Shown: positions 7,964-64,000 of the stretch, in pieces
Layout of the letters: each line of letters opens with the position of its first letter
Position numbering within the stretch: the first letter of the stretch is position 1
From: Defluviitaleaceae bacterium
GTDB lineage: Bacteria; Bacillota; Clostridia; Lachnospirales; WQUN01
Direction of reading: 5' to 3'
DNA length: 64,000 nucleotides
Assembly (NCBI GenBank): GCA_009786925.1
Contig: WRGY01000124.1
Span: 1 to 64,000, forward strand
Notes under the pieces: model-generated
What the model saw: only the letters and a program-made list of their open reading frames with translations
What the model was told of the DNA's origin: nothing
The model's database searches: none
Made by a program: the position numbers and the translations under genes

Positions 7964-8043
7964 TTACAGGCGACCCCCAAAGCGCGTTTTTCTGCGCGCC
8001 ATTTGATATTTACATGGTACAAAATTTTATGCAAATTTATAGA

Positions 8044-8072
8044 ATTATAGTGCCACCCTACAAAGATGTCAA
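8044..8072 (-). promoter_or_regulatory. Consensus sigma-A promoter of the sugar ABC operon
   Basis: On the minus strand TTGACA (8072-8067) and TATAAT (8049-8044) are separated by exactly 17 bp, a perfect vegetative promoter. It lies about 80 bp upstream of the solute-binding protein start at 7963 and reads into that operon. Confidence 0.85.
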
Positions 8073-8081
8073 CGGTTTTAT

Positions 8082-8097
8082 ACGAAAACGCTTTCGT
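8082..8097. promoter_or_regulatory. LacI-family/CcpA-like operator
   Basis: The 16-bp stretch ACGAAAACGCTTTCGT is a near-palindrome with a central CG, the hallmark of LacI/CcpA-family operators, and is close to the cre consensus. It sits 9 bp upstream of the -35 box of the sugar operon promoter. That position fits an activator, or a repressor using a second site, better than simple promoter blockage. Which regulator binds is not determined. Confidence 0.55.
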
Positions 8098-8168
8098 TTT
8101 ATGTGCCTATTGCATAAAAGGGGGAGGAGTGCATTCCATTAGGCTTTGTGAAAATTTACAAGGAGTGG

Positions 8169-9443: not shown

Positions 9444-9458
9444 TTTGTTTGCTCCTTT

Positions 9459-14821: not shown

Positions 14822-15874
14822 TTATTTGAATTTCAACGTATTTTCTGCGCCTGTATAAATGTCAAACAATTCTTGTTTTATTTTGTTAAATTCTTGGTCA
14901 AGATTGACTGTTTTCACAAAAATATGGCAGTCATCTATGATATAGGTACGCTTTAAAGGTTCGTCTACTTGAGGGTATAGGAGCATACCTCCGACTGATT
15001 TTTTCGCTGCTTTTTCAGCTAACCATGAAGCCTCATTTTTGACATAAGCAAATATTTGGTATAGGTTGCTTGATATAATCGTCTGGTTGTCACTAAAGCG
15101 ATTGGATTGCAGTGTTTTTGAGTAGAATTTGGTGTCGATAATTAACCTTATCTCATCAGATGAGATGGTGGTGTCAGCGTTCATCCTTGGCAGCAACTCC
15201 GAATTTTCAGTTTTCCACTTTATCTGTTGCTGGAAGGAAACAGAATGGGGCAAATGCTTTTTATAGAACGCAAAAATAAACTTCTCGAATAGAGATGGTA
15301 GCAGATTATCTTCGAGTGTTCTAAACTCTTTGCTTCCTTTATTTTGGTTGGCTATTGCATCTTCACATATCAATCTACAAAAATAGAGCAACGTGTCATA
15401 ATGAGCATTATTTCGGTTAAACACAAAAACATCCCATTTCACGGCACTGATATTTATAGCATCAATTTCATTAAAATAAAGTAGTACCCTTGATACATCT
15501 CGCTTAATATTCGCTTTCAAAGGCAGTCTGGTCAAATGCAGAAAAGTAGCTTTCAACACTTGGTTGAATAGAATATTTCCATTAAATTCATCAAAGTTGC
15601 ACACAGCTTTCGCATTATGAAATGACAATCGCCGGATAGAGTTTCCAATATCAACTCTTCCGCGAATAGATGTCAGCTCCTCTGCTTGGTTCACATAATT
15701 TTTGAGAAAACCCCGTTTAATCAGCGTTTGAGTTCCGCACAAAAGCAAGGAGGCAAGCAAGTCATAAATATTCTCGCAATCCTCTCTGTTAAGTCGCTCG
15801 TACTCTTTTGATTTCAAAACCTCAAAGGCATAAACGAGCATATTGTACACGTTTTTTATCGGCACATTGCTCAT
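14822..15874 (-). CDS. mcrC: McrC-type restriction endonuclease subunit
   Basis: 350 residues. The N-terminus (IKNVYNMLVYAFEVLKSKEY) and the following helical region match the McrC family. The PD-(D/E)xK nuclease core is visible near residues 232-258: LPRMNADTTISSDEIRLIID followed by TKFYS, where Asp and the DTK motif supply metal ligands and the catalytic lysine. McrC is the nuclease recruited by the McrB GTPase motor to cut DNA carrying modified bases. Its start overlaps the end of mcrB by 4 bp (ATGA), so the two are translationally coupled. It lies inside the skin-type element. Confidence 0.93.
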   Translation of the reverse strand: MSNVPIKNVYNMLVYAFEVLKSKEYERLNREDCENIYDLLASLLLCGTQTLIKRGFLKNYVNQAEELTSIRGRVDIGNSIRRLSFHNAKAVCNFDEFNGNILFNQVLKATFLHLTRLPLKANIKRDVSRVLLYFNEIDAINISAVKWDVFVFNRNNAHYDTLLYFCRLICEDAIANQNKGSKEFRTLEDNLLPSLFEKFIFAFYKKHLPHSVSFQQQIKWKTENSELLPRMNADTTISSDEIRLIIDTKFYSKTLQSNRFSDNQTIISSNLYQIFAYVKNEASWLAEKAAKKSVGGMLLYPQVDEPLKRTYIIDDCHIFVKTVNLDQEFNKIKQELFDIYTGAENTLKFK

Positions 15875-49816: not shown

Positions 49817-50377
49817 ATGATGGATTTTGATGTTTTAGAGTTTAGCAAAATGCTGTCAGAGAAGAAAATAACCGTGATTTACAGCGGCCCGATATGGGCA
49901 GATGGCGTGGAAGGCATGGCAGAGTTTCTACAGAGGAAGCTGGATGTTGATAATTTGTCACGCACTGTTTCCAAGTCGATTTTCTCGGTGTTTGTAGAGC
50001 AGATGCATAATATGCTTATGTATTCGGCAGAAAAGGAAATATTTACAGCTGAAGATGATGATGATGCCGTTCTCTCTAAAGGGATGTTTGTTATGGGCAA
50101 AGAGGGAGACACCTATTTTATCAAAACCGGGAATGTAGTAACCGATTACAGTGCAGGTGTTTTGAAAGAGCGTATAGACTATCTCAACACGCTGGATAAG
50201 CAGGGCCTAAGGCAGTATTTTAAAGAAAAACAGAGAAGTGATGATGACAACCCCGAGAGCAAGGGCGCGGGCATGGGGCTAATCGAAATTGCAAGGCGGT
50301 CATCATCCAAAATTAATTACAAATTTACACCGCAGGGCGAAGGCTTTAAGTACTTCTCCATGTCTGTAGAAATTTAA
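49817..50377 (+). CDS. SiaB-family protein kinase (DUF6272)
   Basis: 186 residues. KSIFSVFVEQMHNMLMYSAE looks like the N-box helix and SKGAGMGLIEIARRSSSKIN the G-box of a compact GHKL-type kinase, as in SiaB. SiaB phosphorylates SiaC. GAAGGAGAG precedes the start, 14 bp after the phosphatase gene. Confidence 0.88.
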   Translation: MMDFDVLEFSKMLSEKKITVIYSGPIWADGVEGMAEFLQRKLDVDNLSRTVSKSIFSVFVEQMHNMLMYSAEKEIFTAEDDDDAVLSKGMFVMGKEGDTYFIKTGNVVTDYSAGVLKERIDYLNTLDKQGLRQYFKEKQRSDDDNPESKGAGMGLIEIARRSSSKINYKFTPQGEGFKYFSMSVEI

Positions 50378-50392
50378 GAAGGAGGTAGCGAT

Positions 50393-50779
50393 ATGTCTTT
50401 TTATATGGAAAAACAAAAAACAGGCTCTACGCCATATATTTTGATTGATGAATCAAAGGGTTATATGAAAATGAGCGGCAAGAGTTTTCCGGAAAAAGCA
50501 CTTGATTTTTTTGGAGAAGTTATTACCTGGCTGGACGGCTACCTTGCTACAGACTTTGGTGAGTTTTTGTTTGACTTTGCAATGGAATATCATAATAGCT
50601 CTACGCTAAAGGTCATAACAAATATGCTGATGAAGATGGACGAATGCGCCGTCAGCGGCAATAAAATCACCGTAAACTGGATTGTTGCCGAGGATGACGA
50701 AATCATGATAGAAAGTGGCGAAGATATACAAGAGGATGTCCATAATCTAACGTTTAATGTGGTAGTGGTGGACGAATAA
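50393..50779 (+). CDS. SiaC-family regulatory phosphoprotein (DUF1987)
   Basis: 128 residues. ILIDESKGYMKMSGKSFPEK, FFGEVITWLDGYLAT and MEYHNSSTLKVITNMLMKMD match the SiaC/DUF1987 pattern. By alignment with Pseudomonas SiaC from memory, Thr68 there corresponds to Ser69 here (HNSST), so phosphorylation would be on serine. The unphosphorylated form is known to bind and activate the diguanylate cyclase. An AAGGAGG site lies 15 bp past siaB. Last gene of the operon. Confidence 0.88.
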   Translation: MSFYMEKQKTGSTPYILIDESKGYMKMSGKSFPEKALDFFGEVITWLDGYLATDFGEFLFDFAMEYHNSSTLKVITNMLMKMDECAVSGNKITVNWIVAEDDEIMIESGEDIQEDVHNLTFNVVVVDE

Positions 50780-50781
50780 TC

Positions 50782-51387
50782 TTATAAATTCCCATAGTAC
50801 TCCAGACCTAGCTGTGTACGGTTTTTTACATTTAATTTTTCCATGATGACTACTATGTTGTTGCGTACTGTTCCTTCGCTTAGGAATAGAGATGCGGCGA
50901 TTTCTTTGTTTGTTTGACCCCGGGTGATTAGGCGAGCTATGTCCTTTTCTCGTGGGGTCAGGGTAGCAAGGGCGGGGTTTTCTTGGGGGGAAAGATTGCG
51001 CAGGACTTCTGCATCAAGGATGCTTGTTCCGCTGACTAACAGTCGGAGCTTGTCTGCGATTTGAGCAATTTTATCTGTCTTTAAGAGATAGCCGTCCGCT
51101 CCTGCGGCAAGGGCTTGTAATATATTTTGGCGGTCGTCAAAGGTAGTCAGCATCAGGATTTTAATCTGAGGATGACGTTGTTTTATCAGTCGAGTGGCGG
51201 CTATTCCGTCTGTGACGGGCATTCTTATGTCCATTAATATAATGTCGGGTGGGTCAGCAGAGCAGATGTCTACTGCTTCTGCTCCATTGGAAGCTGTGGA
51301 TAGCACATCTATATCACTCTGCTGCTCCAGCTTTATTTTTAAGCTTTTGATAATTAATGGGTCGTCGTCTACTATCAATACACGCAT
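50782..51387 (-). CDS. NarL/LuxR-family response regulator
   Basis: 201 residues from the ATG at 51387 with AAAGGAAA upstream, 2 bp after the kinase stop. Receiver: MRVLIVDDDPLIIKSLKIKL, PDIILMDIRMPVTDGIAATR (phospho-Asp), MLTTFDD, GYLLKTD. LuxR HTH at the C-terminus: LTPREKDIARLITRGQTNKE and LFLSEGTVRNNIVVIMEKLN. It probably controls the ABC exporter genes encoded upstream in the same unit. Confidence 0.95.
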   Translation of the reverse strand: MRVLIVDDDPLIIKSLKIKLEQQSDIDVLSTASNGAEAVDICSADPPDIILMDIRMPVTDGIAATRLIKQRHPQIKILMLTTFDDRQNILQALAAGADGYLLKTDKIAQIADKLRLLVSGTSILDAEVLRNLSPQENPALATLTPREKDIARLITRGQTNKEIAASLFLSEGTVRNNIVVIMEKLNVKNRTQLGLEYYGNL

Positions 51388-51389
51388 AG

Positions 51390-52442
51390 TTATTTTCCTT
51401 TCATGGGAATTACGCACACGAGGCGGAAGATTTTGGAATGCTCGTCTGTACTTGCTGATACATTGCCACCTACTGCCGTCATGCGGCGACGTAGATTTTT
51501 TATACCATTGCCTGTTATTTTTTTTGTCTTGTGCGCTCCGTCATTTTCTACTAAAAGGCGAACAAGCTTTGGTGTAGCATCTATTGTGACTTTTATAAAT
51601 GTCGGGGAAGCGTGACGGGTAGTGTTTGTCAGAGCCTCGTTTAGACAAGCCTCCAGTACACCCCATATATGCACGGGTACATATGATGTGTCGCCATACA
51701 CATCGAAAATGGGCTGTATGCCATAAAATTTTTTGCAAATAATGTGGAGGTTTTCTATTCCCAGGGATTCTATGGTGTTTAGATTGTGTACGGCTTCGCG
51801 GATTTTTACGGCTCCTGTATCGAGGCGTTCCAGCGCGGCATCGTAAAGTGAAAGCGCGTCGGCTGTTTCTTCGTTTTCCGGCAACAAATCCCTTGCCGTT
51901 TGCAGTGATATATATGCAGCTACGATTTCATGCCCTGCGTTGTCGTGGATTTCGCGAGAAATCCTTGCTCGCTCGCTTATCACTGTCATCTGTTCGATTT
52001 TGATTGTGGCGTTCATTAGCTCACTTTGCAGTGCTTCCATTTCGTAGTAGCCGCTTTGATAGTTGTACATGTTTTCCAGATACCGGTCATGGTCTTTTTT
52101 CCAAAGCCTAAGAAAAACCCCTGCAAGTGCCGCAAGCACACATGCGGCGACCAATTGCAAATTTTCAAAAAACACGACGGCAAAAATAATTATGGGGAAA
52201 ACTCCGTAATACATACCCATAAAAATGGCAAATGGTAATACAATCGGAAGAAAAAACACACAGAGCAATCCATCTATAATGGTAGTAAGTCCCATGCGCT
52301 GGAAACGCAATCTAAATAAAATCAAACATGCAAGACTCAGCATGAGGAAAAAGCCTGCTGTCTGCCCACTGACAGTCCAGTAAACAAACAACAGGCAAAC
52401 CCCAAAAACTGTACATGCATGGAACCATTTTTTTTGACTCAA
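51390..52442 (-). CDS. NarL-type sensor histidine kinase
   Basis: 350 residues. About five hydrophobic segments in the first 115 residues with little external sequence, so an intramembrane-sensing type. HisKA_3 has SERARISREIHDNAGHEIVA (phospho-His), and the HATPase has ACLNEALTNTTRHA and GNGIKNLRRRM. Start overlaps the permease gene by 4 bp. Partner of the response regulator that follows. Confidence 0.93.
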   Translation of the reverse strand: MSQKKWFHACTVFGVCLLFVYWTVSGQTAGFFLMLSLACLILFRLRFQRMGLTTIIDGLLCVFFLPIVLPFAIFMGMYYGVFPIIIFAVVFFENLQLVAACVLAALAGVFLRLWKKDHDRYLENMYNYQSGYYEMEALQSELMNATIKIEQMTVISERARISREIHDNAGHEIVAAYISLQTARDLLPENEETADALSLYDAALERLDTGAVKIREAVHNLNTIESLGIENLHIICKKFYGIQPIFDVYGDTSYVPVHIWGVLEACLNEALTNTTRHASPTFIKVTIDATPKLVRLLVENDGAHKTKKITGNGIKNLRRRMTAVGGNVSASTDEHSKIFRLVCVIPMKGK

Positions 52443-53128
52443 ACCAATCTCCGCTTTCCGCCATAAAGCAAAAACATAATTGTGAACAAAGCCATGGCGA
52501 GTATCGCAAGCCAGTACGTACCGGTCGCACCATGGGCAATAAGCTCATTGATGCTGCGTACAGCCCACTGACCCGGCAAAATTGCACCCAGATAATAAAG
52601 TATGTCAGGCAATGATGACAAGCCGATTAAAAATCCACCGAGGAAAGTCGCAAAAGTAAGAAGCGCAATAAATGCCGCGCTCGATGACTCTTTGTTCTTA
52701 AAAACACAGCTCCATGCAAATGACATCCCTATGGTAGAAGCCGACAACATACTATAGCTGAGCGCAAGCAATGCCGCAAATTCGATTTGCCAGCCATGTA
52801 TAATCACACCAAGCACACAGACTATAATAGCCTGTAGCATAGCAGGAATCATAGAGGCAAAGAAATTTTGTACCAGATAACTGCGCATGGAAACAGGGCC
52901 GCATAAAATCCTCATGAGTACACCGGTCATTTTATCTTCCTGTATGCTCTTTGCCATATAAAATGAGCCTACCATAATCATCAATGCGATGAGCAAAAAC
53001 CCCAAGGATGCATCATCAAAAATCCCTCTGGCAAACAATATAAGCACAATCGGTAAGCCTAAGTTTGCAACAAGTGACACAATGTTTAGCCCTCGGCGGA
53101 AGGCATATTTAAAAACAGTCAGATTCAT
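52439..53128 (-). CDS. ABC-2 type permease 2
   Basis: 229 residues, six hydrophobic segments, with MAKSIQEDKMTGVLMRILCG then PVSMRSYLVQNFFASMIPAM, the coupling segment of YhgE/ABC-2 exporters. It overlaps the first permease gene and the kinase gene by 4 bp each. It probably forms a heterodimer with the 269-residue permease. Confidence 0.9.
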   Translation of the reverse strand: MNLTVFKYAFRRGLNIVSLVANLGLPIVLILFARGIFDDASLGFLLIALMIMVGSFYMAKSIQEDKMTGVLMRILCGPVSMRSYLVQNFFASMIPAMLQAIIVCVLGVIIHGWQIEFAALLALSYSMLSASTIGMSFAWSCVFKNKESSSAAFIALLTFATFLGGFLIGLSSLPDILYYLGAILPGQWAVRSINELIAHGATGTYWLAILAMALFTIMFLLYGGKRRLV

Positions 53129-53934
53129 AGAGGCCGCCTCCTTTGTACCATATATACTGCGGCTGTGAGAATCACGCTAATAGCAACGAGTATGCCGATA
53201 TTTATGAACGCCCTGCCCATGTCGAGATTAACAAGTCCAATGTCTGTCAAAATCTGAAAAGTTTCAGACCCCGGCTCTGCGGCAAAGGTACCCGAGTAAA
53301 AAATCGCGTTAAGCCCAAGGGTATAGGGTGTGTAGTGTTGGAAAAACCTGTCAACTGACTCACCGAGGCTAAAACCCATAATCAACCTACCCGCAAAAAT
53401 CTGCATAGCAAAACCTGATACCATGATAATGGCCTCTGTCGTGGATTTTTTCTTGAAGAATATAAACAGCAAGATGCCAAACATCTGTGCCATAAACGAC
53501 AGTATTAGCATGACAATGAAAACAACACCAAGGTTAAACATATAAACGTTGAACAGGAAATAGCTAACCACCAACAGCACCGCGCCGCTAACCATAGAAA
53601 ATATAACCGCCGCTATGGTGGCCGCAAAAATATAGTGGAAGAAGCTCCTGGGTGCTGCCATCAAACGCCAACGCCTCCCACCCATGACATCCGCGTGGAG
53701 GTAATCAATGATAGTGGAGCTACTAAAAATCTGAAACAGAATCAAAATAGACATAACAATGCTGGATGCGATGACATTATAGCCATTTAACATATGGGCA
53801 TCACCCTGGGTATTTGCCGAAAATATCATATAGTTTAGTCCACTAATCGCAAGCGGCAAAAGCCCATATACAAAGAGCATAATTTTGTCACGCAGTACAC
53901 GATTTAGATAATGTTTAATCATAATCAGGAACAT
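53125..53934 (-). CDS. ABC-2 type permease 1
   Basis: 269 residues. First helix at about 18-38, a larger loop, then five more hydrophobic segments; DYLHADVMGGRRWRLMAAPR precedes the second membrane block as in ABC-2 permeases. It starts 12 bp after the ATPase gene. Substrate unknown; similar sets with a NarL-type pair often respond to peptides or membrane-active compounds. Confidence 0.9.
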   Translation of the reverse strand: MFLIMIKHYLNRVLRDKIMLFVYGLLPLAISGLNYMIFSANTQGDAHMLNGYNVIASSIVMSILILFQIFSSSTIIDYLHADVMGGRRWRLMAAPRSFFHYIFAATIAAVIFSMVSGAVLLVVSYFLFNVYMFNLGVVFIVMLILSFMAQMFGILLFIFFKKKSTTEAIIMVSGFAMQIFAGRLIMGFSLGESVDRFFQHYTPYTLGLNAIFYSGTFAAEPGSETFQILTDIGLVNLDMGRAFINIGILVAISVILTAAVYMVQRRRPL

Positions 53935-53946
53935 ATCCCCTACCCC

Positions 53947-54885
53947 CTATTCTTCGTCACGGAGTTTTTTGCCCGTTAAGGTCAAAAAAACATCTTCGAG
54001 GGTTGGTTTTTCGTCGGTGATGGATTTTACGCCACCATGACGCATTGCTATTTCCATTACTCTGTTGAGATTGCCACTATCGGCAGTAGAAACAATAACA
54101 TAGTCATTGCCATTTACTTTTACGTCTTTTACACCTGATACGGCCTTTATTTCTTCGGTCAGTCCAGTGCTTGCAGTTGCGGCAGTCATACGGATTGTAT
54201 CCTCATGTTGCATACCGCCTACGAGTTCTTCGAGTGTGCCGCCGGCTATAATCCGACCGGAGTCCATGATTTGGATTTGGTTGCAGATGGCTTGCACTTC
54301 TTCCATGTAATGTGTCGTGTAAAGTACTGTTGCACCCTCTGACGCGATTTGCTTTACAGATTCCAAGATATGATTGCGCGATTGTGGGTCTATGCCCACT
54401 GTAGGCTCATCCATGATAATAAACTCGGGGCGGTGAACAAGCGCGCAACCGATGTTTAAACGCCTCTGCATACCACCGCTAAACTTGCCCGGCTTCTTTT
54501 TTGCATGTTCTTTTAGGCCGATAAAATCAAGTACGCGGCTTACGTTTTGATTTAGCTCGTTTCCGCCAAGTCCGTAGAGTTGTCCAAAGTAGCGGAGATT
54601 TTCTTCTGCTGACAGGTCTGTAAAAACTGTGATTTCTTGCGTGACAATACCCATGCGGCGGCGTATTTCCAGATTTTTTGTCGTCTGTTTTTTTCCGAAA
54701 ATCGTGATTTCGCCGTGGTCTATGTCAAGCAGTCCACTAAGGGCTCGTATGGATGTTGTCTTGCCCGCGCCGTTCGGCCCGAGCAGTCCAAGGATGTCAC
54801 CCTGTTTTATCTCCAAGTCCAGATGGTCTACCGCGGTAAAATCCCCGTAACGTTTTACTACTTTTTTCATGCTTGCAATACTCAT
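53947..54885 (-). CDS. ABC transporter ATP-binding protein, ABC-2 exporter type
   Basis: 312 residues. Walker A LLGLLGPNGAGKTTSIRALS near 38, signature FSGGMQRRLNIGCALV near 138, Walker B FIIMDEPTVGIDPQSRN near 158 and a C-terminal extension (about 220-310) as in drug or bacteriocin exporters of the CcmA/NatA type. AAGGAGTG precedes the start and lies inside a hairpin (54888-54927). Confidence 0.95.
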   Translation of the reverse strand: MSIASMKKVVKRYGDFTAVDHLDLEIKQGDILGLLGPNGAGKTTSIRALSGLLDIDHGEITIFGKKQTTKNLEIRRRMGIVTQEITVFTDLSAEENLRYFGQLYGLGGNELNQNVSRVLDFIGLKEHAKKKPGKFSGGMQRRLNIGCALVHRPEFIIMDEPTVGIDPQSRNHILESVKQIASEGATVLYTTHYMEEVQAICNQIQIMDSGRIIAGGTLEELVGGMQHEDTIRMTAATASTGLTEEIKAVSGVKDVKVNGNDYVIVSTADSGNLNRVMEIAMRHGGVKSITDEKPTLEDVFLTLTGKKLRDEE

Positions 54886-54887
54886 AA

Positions 54888-54927
54888 AAAATCACTCCTT
54901 TAATTTATTATGCCACGGAGTGATTTT
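54888..54927 (-). promoter_or_regulatory. Hairpin that pairs with the ribosome binding site of the ABC ATPase gene
   Basis: On the minus strand AAAATCACTCC (54927-54917) and GGAGTGATTTT (54898-54888) form a perfect 11-bp stem with an 18-nt loop. The downstream arm contains the GGAG of the Shine-Dalgarno and is followed by further Ts, so it can also act as a terminator for the upstream histidine kinase operon. Confidence 0.6.
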
Positions 54928-54945: not shown

Positions 54946-56595
54946 TCACTTTTTTAAAACGTTGGTGATTAGGTGGAATACTTCGTTGATGTTAATCGGT
55001 TTCCCTACATGGCCGTCCATTCCGAGCTTTAGATAAAGCTCCACATCATCACGTAAAACATTCGCTGTCATCGCTATTATCGGTACATCTTTTGCCGATG
55101 GATGGGGCAATGAGCGGATTTCTACAGTTGCTTCGCAACCGCTTTTTTCAGGCATTTGTATATCCATAAATATGAGGTCGTATGCTTCGGGGTTTTCATT
55201 GTAGATTTTTACGACCTCTTCGCCATTTTCTGCACAAGTTATTCTTACCCCCGTAGGCTCCAGAAGGGTTAGAATAATTTCACGGTTTATTTCTATATCC
55301 TCGGCGATTAGGATATGATAGCCTTTTAGATTTGGAATTTCGTCAATTTCGACATCATCATCTTCTTGAAAGTATCCGCGTTGGATTTGTACGGTGAACG
55401 AAAACACCGAGCCTTTGCCCGGCTCTGACTCTATGCCTATTTTTCCGCCCATCATCTCTACGATTGTTTTTGTGATGGCGAGTCCAAGCCCGGTGCCACT
55501 GTAGCTCTTTGCAAGATTTACATTTGCTTTTCTAAAAGACTCAAAGAGGCTTTTTTGTTGCTCATGGCTTATGCCTATGCCTGTATCTTGCACAAGAATT
55601 TGCAATGTACAAACCTTGTCCTCTATTTTCAATAACTTTGCTTTTAGTGAGATACTGCCGTGACGTGGGGTAAATTTTACTGCATTACCAAGCAAATTTA
55701 TAATAGCCTGTGCAAGCCGCTGGTCATCGCCATACATAAATCTGGGGATATGCGGGTCAATAGTCGTGGTGAAGGTTTGCTCCTTGTCTCCCGAAGAAAA
55801 TGAAATCATATCTTGTACATGCTCCATCATTTTTTTGAAGCTAAATTTCTTTGGAGCAAGTTCGAATCTACCTGTGTCAATTTTGGACATATCCAATATA
55901 TCGTTTACTACACCAAGCAGATGTGTGGACGCACTCTCTATGCGCTTTAGTGTGTAGTGGGCTTTTTCGAGTTCTTCAGAAGTTTTTCCGATGGTGGTCA
56001 TGCCGATAATAGCATTGAGCGGTGTGCGTATTTCGTGGCTCATGCTCGACAAAAACATTGCTTTTGCCATCACGGCATTAGAATATTTTTTAGCAAAAAT
56101 ATAAAGCACCGCGTGCATACCTACCATAACAAAAAATCCTGTATACTCCTGCCCTGTAGTAAACCTTTCGCCCATCAGCGGCATACCTAATACAAAGAGC
56201 ATAAAGCACTGTACGGCGGCGACTGTAGAGATATAAATTACATATCCCCTTTTTTTCATATATGTAAGCGAAAGCATACCGCCGATTAATGTGTATGAAA
56301 ACACCAAAAAATCGCCGTCAAAATGTACTACACCCCACATCATCCAAAACATAAGTGAAATAGGCGTTAAGAAGGCGAGGGTATCAATTTTTAAACTACT
56401 CCGCTCCAAAATAACATAGGTGATAATCATACCAACACTAAGCACGGTACGGACAACAATATAGTCAATGTAAAAATTTAAAACGTAGTAGATAGTAGAG
56501 ACAATCAAAAACGCAATCAGCAGCAAAAAAATATGCGGCGCGGTGTTGTTTTTCTCCGCACCTTTAAAGATATATTTTTTTACAAAGTTAACCAT
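54946..56595 (-). CDS. Membrane-bound hybrid histidine kinase with receiver
   Basis: 549 residues. About six membrane segments in the first 175 residues with no large outer loop, then HisKA with FLSSMSHEIRTPLNAIIGMT (phospho-His near residue 188), HATPase (QAIINLLGNAVKFTPRHGSI; QDTGIGIS; GTGLGLAITKTIV) and a receiver near 430-545 (HILIAEDIEINREIILTLLE, DLIFMDIQMPEKSGCEATVE, AMTANVL). It begins 2 bp after the GTPase gene, so it is the last gene of the tubulin/GTPase operon and perhaps its sensor. No HPt domain or output is visible. Confidence 0.92.
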   Translation of the reverse strand: MVNFVKKYIFKGAEKNNTAPHIFLLLIAFLIVSTIYYVLNFYIDYIVVRTVLSVGMIITYVILERSSLKIDTLAFLTPISLMFWMMWGVVHFDGDFLVFSYTLIGGMLSLTYMKKRGYVIYISTVAAVQCFMLFVLGMPLMGERFTTGQEYTGFFVMVGMHAVLYIFAKKYSNAVMAKAMFLSSMSHEIRTPLNAIIGMTTIGKTSEELEKAHYTLKRIESASTHLLGVVNDILDMSKIDTGRFELAPKKFSFKKMMEHVQDMISFSSGDKEQTFTTTIDPHIPRFMYGDDQRLAQAIINLLGNAVKFTPRHGSISLKAKLLKIEDKVCTLQILVQDTGIGISHEQQKSLFESFRKANVNLAKSYSGTGLGLAITKTIVEMMGGKIGIESEPGKGSVFSFTVQIQRGYFQEDDDVEIDEIPNLKGYHILIAEDIEINREIILTLLEPTGVRITCAENGEEVVKIYNENPEAYDLIFMDIQMPEKSGCEATVEIRSLPHPSAKDVPIIAMTANVLRDDVELYLKLGMDGHVGKPININEVFHLITNVLKK

Positions 56596-56597
56596 GA

Positions 56598-57992
56598 CTA
56601 TCGCCCTGCAAAAAACGCAAATACGCGCTGGAGGAATGTTAATTTTTCTACAGTCTTTTGGGTGTATGGAGAGTATGTTCTGTTTTCGAATTTAAGCATA
56701 TGCCTGTGCCGCATGAGTATCCAGTAGAATGCTTCTTTTACGCGGAAAGGCTCCAACGGGCCGTCAACATAGCCTTTTTCTATTGTTTCGTTGGTATCGG
56801 GGTCAGAGATTTGTTCTACCATGGGCTTTTTGCCCAAGCTGGACACGGCAAAGCAACTTACCGTTTTAAAACATCCCAGTGCATTGTTTAAAATACGCTC
56901 TTCACCCAGATATGCCAAAAGTTCGCGAACTTCTTGGTTGAGTCCTTTTACACTGCGCATATTTACCGCACCTGCATGTTGCTCATCTGCGAAGAGATGC
57001 TGTATGCGATTTTCGGGCTTATTGTGAAAAAAGTCAAGATTAACAAAGCTCAACAAGTCTGCCTTAGAGAGCAGGAGTGCCATGGGGATGGAGCTTTTTT
57101 CGCGCTCAAGTCCAAGGAAATAATTGTATAGCGTATTAAAAATCTGCTGGTTAGAATTTTCTTCGGGGATTGCGTCAATAAGCGATGAATCAGAAAAGCG
57201 AAACAAATCAGATAGTTTATTAAAATTGGTGGGGTCAACCAAAAAGATTAGCCCTGACGAGTCCTTGATATTAAATCCATTTTGTCTGATGCCGGCATCA
57301 TCACGCAAGTCCTCGCCCGCAATATCATAAAAGATAATGTCAATCGTGTTTTCTTCCATCACGCCTTCTTCATTTTTGTGTCTGTACCAAAAGTTGAAGG
57401 CGTATGGCGGGATTTTTTTGCGCTTTGTAGAACTGACCAGCTCATGGTTTTTTAAAAGCGGCTTTTGATAGTTTTCATAGAAAGACTCGCGCACCTGCGT
57501 GTCACCGATAAATGTAAGCTTTGACGGAAAGTCCATATTGTTTTCCAGCTCAGAAATAAGCACAGTCAAAAACACCGATTTTCCTACGCGAGCGTCACCC
57601 AGTATAGAAATAAGCAGGGTTTCGCGTATGCCGTAGCCTATGGGCAGGTCATTGTGACAGTTTGGGCAGAGACGTTTTTCACAGATAATTTTTTTGCCAT
57701 CGGGTGATGTGTAGGTCACATGTTGTACAAATCCGTATTTTGCCAACTCTGTTTCATCATATTTTACTTCAGGATTGCTTATTTCTATTGCGGGTGGTTG
57801 CATTGCCTTTGATGTTGCTTCCTTTTCTGTGACTTGCAAAACATCTGTTTGGTAGTCGTAAAGCAACTCGTCAAGCTCCAGGCCGTCTTTTGTTTTCTTT
57901 TTGCCCTTTACCGCAGGCAGGCGAAAATCCGCCTCATTGGGGTGGAAGCGGTGACAGCAAAATGGGCATATTACGCTTTCGACTTTTTTCAT
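56598..57992 (-). CDS. Zinc-ribbon GTPase, double-GTPase (DO-GTPase2)-like
   Basis: 464 residues from the ATG at 57992; the ATG at 58001 is too close to the AAGGTGG site. Two CxxC pairs (CPFC at 9-12 and CPNC at 109-112) suggest a zinc ribbon. The P-loop is ILGDARVGKSVFLTVL at 130-145, the switch-II-like motif FYDIAGEDLRDD near 225 and LLLSKADLL near 300 stands for NKxD. The arrangement fits the TRAFAC-like double-GTPase family predicted in bacterial conflict systems. It is encoded 15 bp after the 207-residue protein in a tight operon with a tubulin-like gene. GTPase is well supported, the family name less so. Confidence 0.8.
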   Translation of the reverse strand: MKKVESVICPFCCHRFHPNEADFRLPAVKGKKKTKDGLELDELLYDYQTDVLQVTEKEATSKAMQPPAIEISNPEVKYDETELAKYGFVQHVTYTSPDGKKIICEKRLCPNCHNDLPIGYGIRETLLISILGDARVGKSVFLTVLISELENNMDFPSKLTFIGDTQVRESFYENYQKPLLKNHELVSSTKRKKIPPYAFNFWYRHKNEEGVMEENTIDIIFYDIAGEDLRDDAGIRQNGFNIKDSSGLIFLVDPTNFNKLSDLFRFSDSSLIDAIPEENSNQQIFNTLYNYFLGLEREKSSIPMALLLSKADLLSFVNLDFFHNKPENRIQHLFADEQHAGAVNMRSVKGLNQEVRELLAYLGEERILNNALGCFKTVSCFAVSSLGKKPMVEQISDPDTNETIEKGYVDGPLEPFRVKEAFYWILMRHRHMLKFENRTYSPYTQKTVEKLTFLQRVFAFFAGR

Positions 57993-58007
57993 AGCTAACA
58001 TACCACC

Positions 58008-58631
58008 TTATACTAAATTGAATAAATGCGAATAATTTTTGTCCAAAATGTATTTTACTATACGGTCTTTTTCCAAAATGATACTGCATGTGCCGCTCAT
58101 TACCATGTAGTCTAGCTCGTACTCCCCTATTTTGCGCCCTTGCTCGTAGATGGCGTATTTTAAAACTTGGCTGACAGGTATCTGCGACTCGTCGGATACG
58201 GTAACGCGCAATGTAGCCTTGTGATACTGCCCAAGTGTAATCGGCGTATATGAAACACTTGCATTGATTGTTACTTTCTTAAACAGCCATTCGGTGACAT
58301 ATGCCGGTTTTACAATCGTTATTCCCTTATCCTCATTAAAAAATGCTGGTATGATGATATGCTTTTTTTTACCACTGGTTATGGGTTTTGTATAGCTGTT
58401 TGCGAGGTCGCGGGTGACTACATCATGCTTTCGGTCGCTTTTTGCCAAAAGCTCCTCTATTTCCGGAGCATCCTCTGTCTCGTATTCAAATACCAGCATA
58501 AGCTTTAGGTCGCGATTTTTTGGCCAATCCCATGACAATATGGCATTGTTTTTGTTGTCGATTGTCCACTCAAAGCGACGAAGCTTCATCGTATCATCTG
58601 ATGATGTTATAAAATTGTGCTTTTTAGCCAT
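58008..58631 (-). CDS. Unknown 207-aa protein of the tubulin/GTPase operon
   Basis: 207 residues, no signal peptide or membrane segment. FEWTIDNKNNAILSWDWPKN, then KKHIIIPAFFNEDKGITIVK and VSYTPITLGQYHKATLRVTV suggest two beta-sandwich (fibronectin/Ig-like) units. The N-terminus is acidic and basic in turn. No family recognised. It lies 7 bp after the 590-residue gene and 15 bp before the GTPase gene. A structural or adaptor role within the system is a guess. Confidence 0.75.
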   Translation of the reverse strand: MAKKHNFITSSDDTMKLRRFEWTIDNKNNAILSWDWPKNRDLKLMLVFEYETEDAPEIEELLAKSDRKHDVVTRDLANSYTKPITSGKKKHIIIPAFFNEDKGITIVKPAYVTEWLFKKVTINASVSYTPITLGQYHKATLRVTVSDESQIPVSQVLKYAIYEQGRKIGEYELDYMVMSGTCSIILEKDRIVKYILDKNYSHLFNLV

Positions 58632-58638
58632 TGCCTCG

Positions 58639-60411
58639 TCACCAATACAATTCGTCCAGATTAAACGCGCCCGCGTGATATAGTGCAGATACGTGGCTTT
58701 CGCTCGCGTTTTCGATTGAGAAGAGATTCATCCTGCCTTGACCGCGCTGTTCATAGCATTTTTTTGTCTCGAAGGCCTGTGCCGACGGTACATATAGGTT
58801 AGCCTCCGTATGCAGTTTTGCATAGCCCGTCTTTAGTCGGATGCCGAGATGATTGTTTTGTGCCACCCACTCACTTAATGCCTCTGCCGGTGGCTCGTCA
58901 CCGATTAACTCTTGCAGGATTTCCATGATGGGACGGCTAAACTCTTGCGATGTAATAATGTTTTTTTCTATGAAATCCATTAGCCGTTTTTTAAAACCGG
59001 AAAAATCATTTTTGTCGAAGTACTCCATCATTTCTCTATGCAAATCCTCGATTTGCGTCTTATGTGACGTAGCGTATGAAATAAATTTTTCCTGGAAATA
59101 GGATAATGCATTATTGCAAAAACCTTCGAACATCTTGTTTATTTCTTCTGCCTTTTTTTCTTGCTCGGATATTGTTTTGTTGATTTCGGACTCGTAGCGG
59201 CAGAGTTTTTTATGATACACAGATATTTTGCGCCGTTGGCGTTCCATGATTTTTATTTTATCTTTTATATGCTTTATGTCGTTTTGCTTGCGTAGATACT
59301 CATGTGCAATATTGTAGGGCAACAGCTCTTGGCTCTTCAGCGGAGAAAGGCGGCGTGTGATGTACTCGTCTCTTTCAGGGGGCTTTGCAAGCCAGTTTTT
59401 GCATTTTTCCTCTTCGGAATGCAGGACTGCGATTGCATTTTCTGTGTTTTCCCTTGCTGTTTTTTCAAAAAAACCGCCCTCGGATGTACAACGCAATAAG
59501 TCATAAATGCTTGTTGCTTGTGGTGCTATATTCTCCTCTTTAAAATCGGCTTCGTCCCAGTCATTATCAAGGCTGTCAAGCTTTAGACCAAAACATCTTT
59601 TTATCCACTGCCCGCGTGTTAGTGGGTCAGCATAGTTTGCATCCGGGATGGCAATACCATACAGATACTCCATGGTTTTTGTTGGATGCTTGGGCGGGAA
59701 CTCCGGTGTCTTTAGCTGTGGTGGTTGGTTTTGTATGTCGTATTTTAGTATTTCTGCCATAAGCAGAGATTTTAATGCGTCTTGCGGTATATTTAATTTT
59801 ACACTACCTGCTGTGAGAAAATCCCCGTTTCTTGCCGCACAGTTCTTGAGAAAAAACATTTCGCTGTAACGAGACGCGTCTGCCTCTGCTACATTTAAAC
59901 TCTGTGATGAGTTTTTAAAAAGTGTGAGCATCGCCATAGTCTGGGCAATTGTCTCTTTTTGTATAAAAGATGCTGTGCTTGTGAGGTTTGAAAGCAGATA
60001 TATGTTTAGTCCCTCACCCTTTATTTCGTCAAGCATTGCTATTGCAGATTTTCTTGTTTCGTCCGTCAGATTAGAATCATCAAACAGACAATACACATCC
60101 CCTAGTATGCCCGCGGGATATAGTGGCGAAAAAAATTTTTCTGCTGCGACAATCAAGTCAGGCAAGTTGAGTGCGGTGTCATCAGCGTTGATTAAAAAAT
60201 TAGCACGTAGTATGTCTGCTTTGTACACTCCTAAAAACTCTTGCCAAATACGTTTTACTTCTTTTTTAATGAAATCTTCGTCAAAATCCTGCGGAACTTT
60301 TATAAAACCAACGCCACTCATATAGTCAGAAATTGCGTCGGATAAAAACGGCAAAAACTCATGGCAACTGCCAAGACCCAACAAAACCACGGGATTATTT
60401 AGTGTTTTCAT
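58639..60411 (-). CDS. Unknown 590-aa protein, possibly a degenerate tubulin-like companion
   Basis: 590 residues from the ATG at 60411, which overlaps the stop of the tubulin-like gene (ATGA). The N-terminus NNPVVLLGLGSCHEFLPFLS mirrors the first strand and loop of the tubulin-like protein (DKPILILGLGGTGAEALIRV). NIYLLSNLTSTASFIQKETI at 136-155 occupies the place of the tubulin glycine-rich loop but lacks the glycines, so GTP binding is unlikely. Residues 370-430 are a strongly charged coiled-coil. The C-terminal 150 residues are unrecognised. It may be a nonfunctional-GTPase partner of the tubulin-like protein; this is inference from two short stretches. Confidence 0.75.
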   Translation of the reverse strand: MKTLNNPVVLLGLGSCHEFLPFLSDAISDYMSGVGFIKVPQDFDEDFIKKEVKRIWQEFLGVYKADILRANFLINADDTALNLPDLIVAAEKFFSPLYPAGILGDVYCLFDDSNLTDETRKSAIAMLDEIKGEGLNIYLLSNLTSTASFIQKETIAQTMAMLTLFKNSSQSLNVAEADASRYSEMFFLKNCAARNGDFLTAGSVKLNIPQDALKSLLMAEILKYDIQNQPPQLKTPEFPPKHPTKTMEYLYGIAIPDANYADPLTRGQWIKRCFGLKLDSLDNDWDEADFKEENIAPQATSIYDLLRCTSEGGFFEKTARENTENAIAVLHSEEEKCKNWLAKPPERDEYITRRLSPLKSQELLPYNIAHEYLRKQNDIKHIKDKIKIMERQRRKISVYHKKLCRYESEINKTISEQEKKAEEINKMFEGFCNNALSYFQEKFISYATSHKTQIEDLHREMMEYFDKNDFSGFKKRLMDFIEKNIITSQEFSRPIMEILQELIGDEPPAEALSEWVAQNNHLGIRLKTGYAKLHTEANLYVPSAQAFETKKCYEQRGQGRMNLFSIENASESHVSALYHAGAFNLDELYW

Positions 60412-63400
60412 GCAAGTACTTTCTTTTGCTGTGCAAACACCTCGCACATAGTACGATAGAATACACGCTTTAGGCTACCCTCTCGTTCGTCTGAGTAGGA
60501 TTTTTCCAGCTGTTCCAATTTTTCTCTATAATCATTGAGGATGTCATCTATATATGCAACTATTTTGACAAAATGTGCATCCTCTAGCTGATTTTCGTGT
60601 TCCTGGGCATTTTTTTGGAGATAGTCTGTGATGTCGTCGTCCAAGTCGATATATGCTTTGAAAACATCGTAGTCCACATATCTGTCAGAAATATTTTGCA
60701 TCGTATAAAGGATTTGTGTCTCTCCATCTATGATGTAGCGATAGTTTTTGCGGTTTTTTGTAATCACCTTCATATACAGCATCTGTGCAAAATGGCTGTA
60801 TTTTACCTCACTCAAGTCTATTTTTGTAAGCTCGTCGCGCAGGGCGGCGATATGCTCACGGATTTTAACTTCTTGTTTTACACGCTCATATAATGCGGGC
60901 ATATAGATAAATACACCCTTTGCGTAGTCGATGTCAGGGTCGTCGCTCTCTTGCAGGTATTCTGTGTCAAACAATGGACGAAAATATTTTTCTCTATCGG
61001 GAGATGCGAGAAACTCGTTTAGTTCTGTGATGGCGGCACGAGCTTGTGTTGCATTTAGGGTTTTCTCTGTTATTCCGCTTTCGATATGTGCAAAACGCTC
61101 ACCAAGGTCTATATGGTCGCCATAGAAACCAAAATAACAGCGGGTGCGTTCTTCCAGTCGGATTATTTTATATTCCAATGCCAAGTCAAAAAGCTCACGC
61201 AGTCGATTGTTTTTTAGACGTTCGCGGTTGTTTTCATAGTCGGTTGTCCATAGCTGGTCATAGTTTGGCGAAGGCAGTTCTTTCCAGTTGCGCTCCGGGC
61301 ATTCATATAGATGCAGACCAGCGATTTTGTTAAAGGATGTCTCGTACACAGCCTCATACTCGTTTAATTCTGTATAACAATATAGAGGAACTGCAATTTT
61401 TAGATTTAACATATAAAGGCGGTTGTTCATTTTGCTTGACTTCATGTTAGAAACACGACCTGATGTGTTTAGTTGGCGCACTACGCTTTTGATTTGCGGA
61501 GCATTATAGGGCACGGAAAGATATGCATACGGCGGGAAAACAATATGCAAGCCACTCGGCACATGATTTATAGGGAACATGACCTTAGCACTGTCATGCA
61601 GGTCATTGATTTTGACCGATACATATTCTTCCAGACCGATTTCGGCAGTTGCTGCCATCATATTGCAGTAGTAGTCAAGCGATTTGTGTACAACATTTTG
61701 GAATTGTTGCGTTATGAAATCATTGAGATTATCAACTATTTGTGTCCCGTTTGCGTCATGCCATTCGGGATTTGCAATCATGTCTTTTAAAAGTCGATTA
61801 AGCGATTGTTTGTAATCTAGTGTTTTTGTAGAGTCATCATCTTTTTCGAATGCATCACAAAATTCCTTTGTCCCTGACAAATCCTTTGCAAAGCTGTCAT
61901 CAGAAAAAGCAGAGTTTTGTGCATTTTTAAATTTGTCGAATAATTCTTTAAATGAGTTAAGCACTTCACAGAGGGTATCTACGGTTTGTTCGTTTAACTC
62001 GTTTAACTTTGCCAGCACAGAGTCATATATATGGTCGATTGCGTCGTACATGAGATTTTTTCCACATGCACGGAGATAGCTTTCGTTTGCTTCTACGATA
62101 TTAAGCGCGAGGCTTTTTTTGCCAAAACCAAAAATTGATTTTTTAAGTAGTTTGGCCATAACCGCTTGGCGACCTATGTCCATGGCGGCTATACTGTCGC
62201 GATGCTCACGTTTTTGTTGGATGTCGCGTTTGCGGATTGTGTCAATCTCGCGGTTTAGTGAAGCCTCATGCAGGTCAGAAAGTAGGCGCAATGTATAGTA
62301 CGGACCACGCTCCAGGTCAGAAAAATTTTGATGTATTATATTGTTTTTGTCAGTGATTGCTTCGTTAAAGGCGGAGATGACTGCCTCTGCGGCATTGCTG
62401 TAATGGTCTTTCATTTTGTTTAGCTCATTTTTAACCGCATCTTCGATGATTTCCGGGCGTTGTTGCAATACTATATGGTCGTATTTTTTGAAATTACGCT
62501 GTTTTGGTTTGTCGGTAGAAAGAGTCCTTTCCAGAGTGGGCAAGTCTATTTTGAAGCTTTCAAGCGCGATTTTAGAATCCTCAATTGTGGGATTTTTTTC
62601 TGAAAGTGGCTCAAGCTCTGCAAACATTTTTGATGTGAGATAGTTTAACAAATATTCTATTGGCAAGGACGCACTGGATGCACCCACCGTGTTATAGATG
62701 TAGTTGACAGGTTGTTTTTGACTATGCGTCATCAAGAATGCAGCTTTGTTGTTTTCTATATTAGAAAGGTAGGAGCTTATTGTATAGCTTTGGCCATCGG
62801 TTACTTCTTCGCTTGCGATAAAGTTAATGATTGTCTCGGCTGCGACGTTCATACAATAGTTTTTTGCAGAAGGCACAAGCTTACCATGCTCATCCTTAGC
62901 ACTTACGAGATGGCACAAGTCATATGGTGGCTCATTGGATTTAATTTCGAGGTCAGCAAATGTCTGTTCAAAAATATCACCGTTACGCTCTATATTCATT
63001 AGATAATCAAGCTCTTTTAATGCGGCAAACCCATTTGCTTTGATGTTGAGCGCGGCAGAGCCGTCTATCATACTGTCGGAGAGTGTAACATCGGGCAAAA
63101 ACACCATGCCGATATTTTCTGTCTCAAAACCTTTTTGCTCCGCGATTTTGCGTACAATATATGGGACATCAATAAAAACACCGCTTCCTGTGCCACCTGC
63201 GCAGCCCGCTAAAATAAAAACGTATAGCAGGTCATTAGATTTCCTGTTAACGGTGAGTCGATTTATTTTTTCTGTAAGTAGACTGATTACACGATTGCTG
63301 TTTATGGTGAGCAACAAACGACCGGCTTGGCGGATGCCGCCCGCACCATGTTTCACCTGTTGTAGACGCAAATTCCCTGCAATCCAGCTCTGGGTAGAAT

Positions 63401-63770
63401 TTTTAAACACGGTTTCGCGATTTTTGTAAATAGAAGTAAGGTTTGCATTATCTAACAGCAAAAATTCATCCTCAGAAAAGGATGTGCCCGCATAATTTAG
63501 ATTTAGCATATTGTCATCCGAGTCAAGTGCCATATATTCAATCTGAGAAGGCTTGTCCAGTCTGCGCCCACTCGCCGATGTACCCAGTTTAAAATGTTTG
63601 TTTACCGCTTTTTTTACACGAATAAGAGCCTCTGCGCCTGTGCCGCCGAGGCCTAGTATTAATATAGGCTTGTCTATTGCATCTGTGCGTGTACCTTGGG
63701 TGGATATGCCGCCGCCGTATTCCGTATCCAGTGCTTGCAGTTCTGCTTTTGTTTCTGCCGAGAGTTTCAT
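60408..63770 (-). CDS. Tubulin-like (Tubulin_2) large GTPase
   Basis: 1120 residues from ATG 63770 (a TTG at 63773 abuts it). Strand and loop PILILGLGGTGAEALIRVKK near 36-55 and the tubulin signature LAGCAGGTGSGVFIDVPYIV near 187-206 (core GGTGSG) define a tubulin/FtsZ-type nucleotide site; YMALDSDDN near 80 lies in the expected third loop. The length is about three times FtsZ: the extra 700 residues are mainly helical with coiled-coil stretches. This is the pattern of the bacterial Tubulin_2 family. It is encoded with a GTPase, a possible degenerate paralogue and a hybrid kinase in one operon. Polymerisation is plausible but not shown by the sequence. Confidence 0.88.
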   Translation of the reverse strand: MKLSAETKAELQALDTEYGGGISTQGTRTDAIDKPILILGLGGTGAEALIRVKKAVNKHFKLGTSASGRRLDKPSQIEYMALDSDDNMLNLNYAGTSFSEDEFLLLDNANLTSIYKNRETVFKNSTQSWIAGNLRLQQVKHGAGGIRQAGRLLLTINSNRVISLLTEKINRLTVNRKSNDLLYVFILAGCAGGTGSGVFIDVPYIVRKIAEQKGFETENIGMVFLPDVTLSDSMIDGSAALNIKANGFAALKELDYLMNIERNGDIFEQTFADLEIKSNEPPYDLCHLVSAKDEHGKLVPSAKNYCMNVAAETIINFIASEEVTDGQSYTISSYLSNIENNKAAFLMTHSQKQPVNYIYNTVGASSASLPIEYLLNYLTSKMFAELEPLSEKNPTIEDSKIALESFKIDLPTLERTLSTDKPKQRNFKKYDHIVLQQRPEIIEDAVKNELNKMKDHYSNAAEAVISAFNEAITDKNNIIHQNFSDLERGPYYTLRLLSDLHEASLNREIDTIRKRDIQQKREHRDSIAAMDIGRQAVMAKLLKKSIFGFGKKSLALNIVEANESYLRACGKNLMYDAIDHIYDSVLAKLNELNEQTVDTLCEVLNSFKELFDKFKNAQNSAFSDDSFAKDLSGTKEFCDAFEKDDDSTKTLDYKQSLNRLLKDMIANPEWHDANGTQIVDNLNDFITQQFQNVVHKSLDYYCNMMAATAEIGLEEYVSVKINDLHDSAKVMFPINHVPSGLHIVFPPYAYLSVPYNAPQIKSVVRQLNTSGRVSNMKSSKMNNRLYMLNLKIAVPLYCYTELNEYEAVYETSFNKIAGLHLYECPERNWKELPSPNYDQLWTTDYENNRERLKNNRLRELFDLALEYKIIRLEERTRCYFGFYGDHIDLGERFAHIESGITEKTLNATQARAAITELNEFLASPDREKYFRPLFDTEYLQESDDPDIDYAKGVFIYMPALYERVKQEVKIREHIAALRDELTKIDLSEVKYSHFAQMLYMKVITKNRKNYRYIIDGETQILYTMQNISDRYVDYDVFKAYIDLDDDITDYLQKNAQEHENQLEDAHFVKIVAYIDDILNDYREKLEQLEKSYSDEREGSLKRVFYRTMCEVFAQQKKVLA

Positions 63771-63780
63771 CAACTAACCC

Positions 63781-64000
63781 CTAATCTTCAAATGCTCTGT
63801 ATGTCATTTCCAGTTTCGGCGATTCGCCCGGGAGAGAGAATATTAGTTGTTTCCCATCCTCCCATATGATTTTTTTCTTATAAATTGCGACTCCATCGCC
63901 GTCAGTGATATGACAGCTTTCGCCTTTTTTGGTGAGGTTAACCACAGGCATAGCACCTTGCATTCCGGGGGAAAGTTGTATGTCCCATATAGGGATGCCC
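63781..64000 (-). CDS. C-terminal end of an unknown protein (partial)
   Basis: The frame is open from the right edge to a TAG at 63781, at least 72 residues: GIPIWDIQLSPGMQGAMPVV ... GDGVAIYKKKIIWEDGKQLI ... LEMTYRAFED. It ends 10 bp before the tubulin-like gene and so belongs to the same operon. The beta-rich tail gives no family. The start lies outside the window. Confidence 0.65.
   Translation of the reverse strand, partial: GIPIWDIQLSPGMQGAMPVVNLTKKGESCHITDGDGVAIYKKKIIWEDGKQLIFSLPGESPKLEMTYRAFED

What the first reader, a model, noticed from the sequence alone, without database searches (positions are those of the whole stretch)
54946..64000. Operon joining a giant tubulin-like protein, a possible degenerate tubulin paralogue, a zinc-ribbon GTPase and a hybrid histidine kinase
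Seen: five complete genes with gaps of -4, 7, 15 and 2 bp plus an upstream partial gene. The first complete gene has the tubulin GGTGSG loop in a 1120-residue chain, the fourth a P-loop GTPase with two CxxC pairs, the last a membrane hybrid kinase. Known: Tubulin_2 and double-GTPase families have been predicted in prokaryotic conflict-type systems. Inferred: a membrane sensor controlling a two-GTPase assembly; no such set with a histidine kinase is known to me.
Basis: partly seen in the sequence, partly recalled or inferred. Interest (0 to 1): 0.85.

Follow-up and report, generated by a model that had tools for sequence, protein, structure and literature searches.

The report
Pared-down bacterial tubulin–GTPase membrane operon
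A termite-gut bacterium carries a compact gene set that probably builds a GTP-controlled, tubulin-like structure at the cell membrane; it is a stripped-down variant of gene sets described in 2010 and 2020, and the signalling kinase attached to it is a local add-on rather than a core part.

Summary
In detail: five complete genes, all on the minus strand, spaced -4, 7, 15 and 2 bp. The upstream partial gene, completed beyond the window, encodes a membrane vWA protein. The window is in a Defluviitaleaceae-type termite-gut MAG. The core is vWA / Tubulin_2 (1120 aa) / degenerate tubulin-like protein (590 aa) / 207-aa FNIII-component homologue / zinc-ribbon DO-GTPase2. It is intact in 13 genomes; in 2 more the GTPase has moved away. 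This is the FtsZl1–vWA–GTPase operon type of Makarova & Koonin (2010) and resembles the Firmicutes 'tubulin theme' of Kaur et al. (2020). It lacks two parts found in complete operons (G011, G263): the second vWA protein and GAP1. All 14 carriers in the 61-genome survey encode GAP1 elsewhere, beside a paralogous GTPase. The histidine kinase is not core. An orthologue sits there in one sister genome only; two other genomes have a non-orthologous hybrid kinase in the same slot; nine have none. Most likely it is a membrane-tied, GTPase-switched tubulin-like assembly, probably borrowing GAP1 in trans, with the kinase as optional input. Function (envelope remodelling or defence) is untested. New variant of a known kind.

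The parts
63781..64000 (-). C-terminal end of membrane vWA protein (637 aa in all; the rest lies at contig positions 64001-65694 = L002:1-1694): N-terminal signal/TM segment, vWA with DxSxS metal site, TM at about 483-501, cytoplasmic tail
   Evidence: a close orthologue (L038) matches PF13519/PF00092 at 6.9e-15/6.7e-14
60408..63770 (-). Tubulin_2 / FtsZl1 protein, 1120 aa
   Evidence: PF13809 3.4e-62; 59-92% identical to 11 orthologues; dN/dS 0.015 against G006
58639..60411 (-). 590-aa degenerate tubulin-like protein with a long central coiled coil; no GGTGSG-type loop
   Evidence: alignment A1; AF2 model pLDDT 77.7; CetZ/FtsZ structural matches Z 10-12 tied with other Rossmann folds; profile link to the second gene of canonical operons E 5.5e-6 and of those to Tubulin_2
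58008..58631 (-). 207-aa protein homologous to the roughly 200-aa component that precedes the GTPase in canonical operons (the FNIII-type component's place)
   Evidence: profile comparison A2 vs A5 E=2.9e-6, prob 88; no Pfam match
56598..57992 (-). zinc-ribbon P-loop GTPase, DO-GTPase2-like (two CxxC pairs, GxxxxGKS, DxAGE, SKxD)
   Evidence: PF19993 7.9e-6; invariant motifs across 15 homologues including GAP1-linked DO-GTPases
54946..56595 (-). accessory hybrid histidine kinase (4 hydrophobic segments, HisKA, HATPase_c, receiver); not part of the conserved core
   Evidence: orthologue in the same position only in G006; dN/dS 0.12
54888..54927 (-). 11-bp hairpin followed by a U run: likely intrinsic terminator ending the operon after the kinase
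   Evidence: -13.6 kcal/mol, z -3.84, 0 of 200 shuffles as stable

Best explanation
The locus is a reduced, paralogous variant of the bacterial FtsZl1 (Tubulin_2)-vWA-GTPase operons. SHOWN: the conserved unit is membrane vWA protein, Tubulin_2 protein, degenerate tubulin-like protein, FNIII-component homologue, zinc-ribbon DO-GTPase2. It lacks the second vWA protein and the GAP1 protein of complete operons, and every surveyed genome with it carries GAP1 at a second, paralogous locus. INFERRED: the vWA protein anchors the system in the membrane and senses or grips something outside through its metal-binding vWA domain. The zinc-ribbon GTPase is the switch that sets when the Tubulin_2 protein assembles on the inner face of the membrane. 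The pseudo-tubulin, which has lost the T4 nucleotide loop, copolymerises with or caps it as a non-hydrolysing partner. The fast-evolving 207-aa protein is the adaptor. GAP1 acts in trans from the paralogous locus. The hybrid kinase, kept under purifying selection in two sister species, is an optional regulatory input at the end of the operon. The biological output is more likely envelope or membrane remodelling, or stress response, than a classical hypervariable defence module, but this is not settled.
For: Domain identities. Conserved order across intact operons. Correlated divergence of the five proteins, r = 0.84-0.94 over 36 pairs, as expected of co-inherited parts though also of shared phylogeny. 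Complete operons vWA-TUB-second protein-vWA2-FN-GTPase-GAP1 in G011 (L056) and G263 (L103) show what is missing. GAP1-N2 is found in 14 of 14 genomes with the window-type GTPase and 6 of 47 without (Fisher p 1.7e-9 for 61 genomes, 6e-6 within the family, not corrected for relatedness). The 207-aa protein is homologous to the FN-position protein. The second protein is a degenerate tubulin. The kinase is non-core. A normal FtsZ is present elsewhere, so cell division is not the obvious job. Literature: PMC2875224, PMC7159879.
Against: The tubulin and GTPase have no solved relative by sequence, and the Tubulin_2 model was too poor to interpret (pLDDT 53), so polymerisation is not tested. In the FtsZl1 family the T6-H7 elements used for FtsZ filaments could not be identified (PMC2875224), so polymers may not form in the known way. 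Co-occurrence with GAP1 may be shared ancestry rather than function. The FNIII fold of the 207-aa protein was not tested. The coverage of genomes is MAG-based and incomplete.
Confidence: 0.6

Rival explanations
1. Conflict (anti-phage) system: the GTPase and FNIII-like adaptor sense an invader and trigger a tubulin-like assembly that blocks the invader or kills the cell, as Kaur et al. proposed for GAP1-N2 systems.
For: Components match the predicted conflict class. The 207-aa and 590-aa proteins diverge fast (mean pairwise identity 38-39% against 66% for tubulin and GTPase), a possible arms-race sign. Flanking genes differ among genera.
Against: No PADLOC model matches a core protein. Across intact operons there is no swapped effector module. 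Upstream neighbours read as ribosomal-protein genes (recognised by eye). The tubulin is under very strong purifying selection (dN/dS 0.015). The Kaur function is itself a prediction.
Confidence: 0.25
2. The hybrid histidine kinase is an integral sensor of the system and its phosphorelay directly controls assembly of the two-tubulin structure.
For: 2-bp spacing to the GTPase and a terminator right after the kinase. Position kept in G006 although synonymous sites are near saturation, dN/dS 0.12. A second, non-orthologous hybrid kinase follows the GTPase by 1-3 bp in G031 and G036. Two independent kinases among roughly 8-10 independent downstream slots is slightly more than chance (P about 0.01-0.06 for an assumed 2-4% kinase frequency).
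Against: Absent from 9 of 13 intact copies, and no kinase-domain hit in the 8 comparison loci and 20 further tubulin neighbourhoods scanned. The G031/G036 kinases do not share the window kinase's N-terminal region. Full-length homologues of the window kinase (44-50%) lie at other loci in G003, G005, G015 and G021.
Confidence: 0.15
3. The kinase is a mere passenger that landed downstream and is transcribed with the operon without functional connection.
For: Patchy presence and an independent kinase family of its own. These genomes are rich in hybrid kinases.
Against: Maintained at the same 2-bp spacing in two species with saturated synonymous divergence, and a parallel kinase in another genus.
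Confidence: 0.4

Closest known systems
FtsZl1 (Tubulin_2) / vWA / GTPase operons, Makarova & Koonin 2010 (PMC2875224)
   Same: FtsZl1 protein with long helical C-terminal part, membrane vWA protein with intact metal site, diverged P-loop GTPase with cysteine-rich region, lineage-specific extra genes
   Different: No OmpA protein or Ser/Thr kinase here; in two species a hybrid histidine kinase follows the operon; a degenerate second tubulin and FNIII-component homologue are assigned here
GAP1-N2-type DO-GTPase system, Firmicutes tubulin theme, Kaur et al. 2020 (PMC7159879)
   Same: DO-GTPase2 with two zinc ribbons, two tubulin-related proteins with coiled coil, TM vWA protein, FNIII-position protein
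   Different: No GAP1 and no second vWA protein in any of the 13 intact operons; GAP1 is at a separate paralogous locus of the same genome
Complete operons in G011 (L056) and G263 (L103), found here
   Same: Same order vWA, tubulin, second protein, FN-position protein, GTPase
   Different: They contain vWA2 and GAP1; in G011 the tubulin and GTPase belong to the paralogous (B) branch (29% identical GTPase, 28% tubulin)

Membership tests
FtsZl1-vWA-GTPase operons (Makarova & Koonin 2010) | FtsZl1/Tubulin_2 protein with N-terminal FtsZ-like domain and long helical/coiled-coil C-terminal part | tested here: met
   PF13809 E=3.4e-62 over residues 38-386; the low-confidence model shows mostly helices after residue 350
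FtsZl1-vWA-GTPase operons (Makarova & Koonin 2010) | vWA-domain protein with metal site in the operon | tested here: met
   vWA gene ends 10 bp upstream of the tubulin gene, DTSGS motif; PF13519/PF00092 in orthologue
FtsZl1-vWA-GTPase operons (Makarova & Koonin 2010) | diverged P-loop GTPase with Walker A, Walker B and T/SxKD motif | tested here: met
   invariant GKS, D-A-G-E, K-D-L columns
GAP1-N2-type DO-GTPase system (Kaur et al. 2020) | DO-GTPase with Walker B glutamate and N-terminal zinc ribbons | tested here: met
   DO-GTPase2 7.9e-6, 0.9 bit below Pfam's cut-off; DxAGE and two CxxC pairs invariant
GAP1-N2-type DO-GTPase system (Kaur et al. 2020) | GAP1 protein in the operon | tested here: not met
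   No GAP1-N2 match near the window-type GTPase in any of 14 genomes; the single GAP1 of this genome is on contig C112
GAP1-N2-type DO-GTPase system (Kaur et al. 2020) | FNIII-repeat component | tested here: inconclusive
   207-aa protein is homologous to the protein at that place in canonical operons, but no FNIII Pfam match and its fold was not modelled
GAP1-N2-type DO-GTPase system (Kaur et al. 2020) | Firmicutes theme: second tubulin-domain protein with coiled coil | tested here: inconclusive
   leans to met: indirect profile chain and FtsZ/CetZ-like fold tied with TIR and dehydrogenase folds; long helix 364-427
GAP1-N2-type DO-GTPase system (Kaur et al. 2020) | Firmicutes theme: two vWA proteins | tested here: not met
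   only one vWA protein per intact operon; two in L056, L060, L103
Anti-phage defence system | protects cells against phage | not testable with these tools
   no PADLOC match to the core; needs phage challenge

The most novel reading that the evidence does not exclude
Two paralogous tubulin-GTPase systems in one cell share a single GAP1 in trans, and hybrid histidine kinases have been recruited at least twice to the end of the operon to gate assembly of a tubulin / pseudo-tubulin structure at the membrane: a phosphorelay controlling a bacterial tubulin-like cytoskeleton.
Probability: 0.12. Interest if true: 0.75.

Novelty: new variant of a known kind. Interest (0 to 1): 0.42.

Why it matters
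The FtsZl1/Tubulin_2–vWA–GTPase operons have been predicted from sequence since 2010; no experimental study and no solved relative came up in the searches made here. This clade separates an apparently minimal five-gene core from dispensable parts (second vWA protein, GAP1 in cis, kinases). That gives a small reconstitution set and a clear prediction: GAP1 acts in trans. It also shows the kinase should not be taken as part of the machine.

Tried and rejected
Kinase as core member: rejected from neighbourhoods in 13 intact operons plus other tubulin loci. Orthology of the G031/G036 kinases to the window kinase: rejected; the N-terminal 172 residues give no match there at E<0.01, and many other kinases of G036 are closer. 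Direct profile link of the 590-aa protein to Tubulin_2: not significant; only the indirect chain via G011/G263 worked, with reversed-profile controls at E 0.06-0.4. Tubulin_2 structure: AF2 with 12 sequences gave pLDDT 53, so it was not searched. Solved relatives by sequence: none credible for the tubulin or GTPase. PADLOC: nothing for the core; the kinase's weak hits are most likely generic kinase domains. The Tubulin_2 survey of the class gave 10 of 293 genomes over the cut-off, so outside this family the type is rare.

Full report
What was checked. The window is positions 1-64000 of contig C124 (67,314 bases) of a 2.28-Mb draft genome. Named relatives of the tubulin gene (59-92% identical) are all Defluviitaleaceae MAGs; a paper on 589 termite-gut MAGs is the only one held with these terms (PMC7024585), and I infer from the bin names that this is a termite-gut bacterium. 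The cut gene at the window end is a 637-residue protein with an N-terminal hydrophobic segment, a vWA domain with a DTSGS metal motif, a second hydrophobic segment near residue 490 and a cytoplasmic tail. A strong hairpin with a U run lies directly after the kinase gene (z -3.84), so the operon very probably ends there and the ABC-transporter genes beyond it are separate.

Identity of the parts. The 1120-residue protein is Tubulin_2 (E=3.4e-62), the family first described as FtsZl1 (PMC2875224). The GTPase is closest to DO-GTPase2 (E=7.9e-6, just under Pfam's cut-off); aligned with GTPases that sit beside GAP1 it shares the P-loop, the DxAGE Walker B with glutamate, the KxDL motif and both zinc-ribbon cysteine pairs. 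The 207-residue protein has no Pfam match, but its family profile matches that of the roughly 200-residue protein preceding the GTPase in canonical operons (E=2.9e-6). The 590-residue protein has no direct match. Its predicted structure (pLDDT 77.7) is an alpha/beta Rossmann-like domain, then a long coiled-coil helix and a small C-terminal alpha/beta part. CetZ2 and many FtsZ chains match it at Z 10-12, but a TIR domain and dehydrogenases tie with them, so fold alone does not decide. The stronger argument is indirect: its N-terminal profile matches the second protein of the G011 and G263 operons (E=5.5e-6 over 162 columns), and that protein matches Tubulin_2 (Pfam E=7e-4, below the cut-off; hhalign E=3e-4; reversed-profile controls 0.06-0.4). 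The segment where Tubulin_2 has the GGTGSG loop carries no such motif in any of 12 orthologues (placement of the segment is by eye). I conclude, with about 75% confidence, that it is a degenerate tubulin.

Conservation. In 61 genomes (own genus, family, order) 14 carry a close orthologue of the GTPase (61-100%), and a second, roughly 30% identical GTPase is widespread. In 12 of the 14 the order vWA, tubulin, 590-aa, 207-aa, GTPase is intact as far as the contigs reach; in L048 the 207-aa gene was not called by my simple ORF caller and the gap there has the right size. A thirteenth intact copy is L086. In G002 and G009 the first four genes are together and the GTPase is elsewhere. Tubulin and GTPase are highly conserved (mean identity 66%), the 590- and 207-aa proteins diverge fast (38-39%), and divergence is correlated across the five (r 0.84-0.94).

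The missing parts. Complete operons in G011 (L056) and G263 (L103) read vWA, tubulin, second protein, vWA2, FN-position protein, GTPase, GAP1, which fits the Firmicutes tubulin theme of Kaur et al. (PMC7159879). The window-type operon has neither vWA2 nor GAP1. The same genome has a second locus with FN-position protein, GTPase and GAP1-N2 (C112; GAP1-N2 E=5.3e-23) and a second Tubulin_2 gene on C122. All 14 genomes with the window-type GTPase have GAP1 at such a second place, against 6 of the other 47; relatedness inflates this test. The reading is that two paralogous systems coexist and GAP1 may serve both.

The kinase. It is a hybrid histidine kinase with a mostly membrane-embedded N-terminus. 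An orthologue in the same position is found only in G006 (68% identical, dN/dS 0.12 with near-saturated synonymous sites). In G031 and G036 a different hybrid kinase (1012-1044 aa, with two receivers and an Hpt domain) follows the GTPase. It lacks the window kinase's N-terminal region, and many other kinases of G036 resemble the window kinase more. Nine intact copies have no kinase next to the GTPase. Full-length homologues of the window kinase stand at other loci in G003, G005, G015 and G021. So the kinase is accessory; two separate recruitments are slightly more than chance would give (with an assumed kinase frequency), which leaves room for a real regulatory link.

How it most likely works. 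Shown: the gene set, its membrane protein, its motifs, the absence of the nucleotide loop in the second tubulin, and purifying selection on all parts. Inferred from established family knowledge: a membrane vWA protein senses or grips something outside; the zinc-ribbon GTPase acts as a switch; the Tubulin_2 protein assembles on the membrane with the pseudo-tubulin as partner or cap; the fast-evolving 207-aa protein gives specificity; GAP1 regulates the GTPase from another locus. Normal FtsZ is present, so ordinary division is not the likely role. I favour envelope or membrane remodelling (as Makarova & Koonin proposed) over a hypervariable defence system, because the operons show no swapped effectors and the tubulin is so strongly conserved, but the evidence is indirect.

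Novelty and verdict. The class is known (2010, 2020). What is new here is a reduced paralogous variant, found in the searches only in this family, with GAP1 only in trans, and the demonstration that the histidine kinase is an optional, probably twice-recruited add-on. New variant of a known kind.

Noticed in passing
L002:1723-2103 (contig 65723-66103); L042:4463-4837; L043:7117-7500: A small regulator (126 aa, looks DtxR/MntR-like by eye) lies just upstream of the vWA gene here, while 71-74% identical homologues lie directly downstream of the GTPase in G029 and G015: the same regulator at opposite ends of the operon.
   Followed up: partly
window 50782-54885: ABC transporter (ATPase, two membrane proteins) with its own two-component pair is also found just beyond the operon in G006 and G029, so the neighbourhood is partly syntenic although separated by a likely terminator.
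   Followed up: partly
window 49817-50779: DUF6272 protein followed by SiaC (E=1.9e-38 and 3.4e-34), a SiaB/SiaC-like signalling pair.
   Followed up: no
G000 contigs C112 (L049:1362-4165) and C122 (L005:314-3388): Second paralogous system in the same genome, split: FN-position protein, GTPase and GAP1 on one contig, Tubulin_2 (1024 aa) on another; in G015, G021 and G029 the paralogous tubulin gene also stands alone.
   Followed up: partly
L069 (G003:C107) and L070 (G007:C8): A third type of vWA-Tubulin_2 operon in the same genus, about 26% identical tubulin; in L070 followed by a second protein, 207-aa protein, GTPase and one more gene at the GAP1 place.
   Followed up: partly
L062 (G021:C2): tubulin 7195-10506, kinase 14839-16572: The closest kinase homologue outside G006 (50% over full length) lies 4.3 kb from the orphan paralogous tubulin gene, on the opposite strand; may be chance.
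   Followed up: no
(61 relatives; 293 genomes of the class): Tubulin_2 is present in 29 of 37 genomes of this bacterial family but over the cut-off in only 10 of 293 sampled genomes of the class.
   Followed up: no
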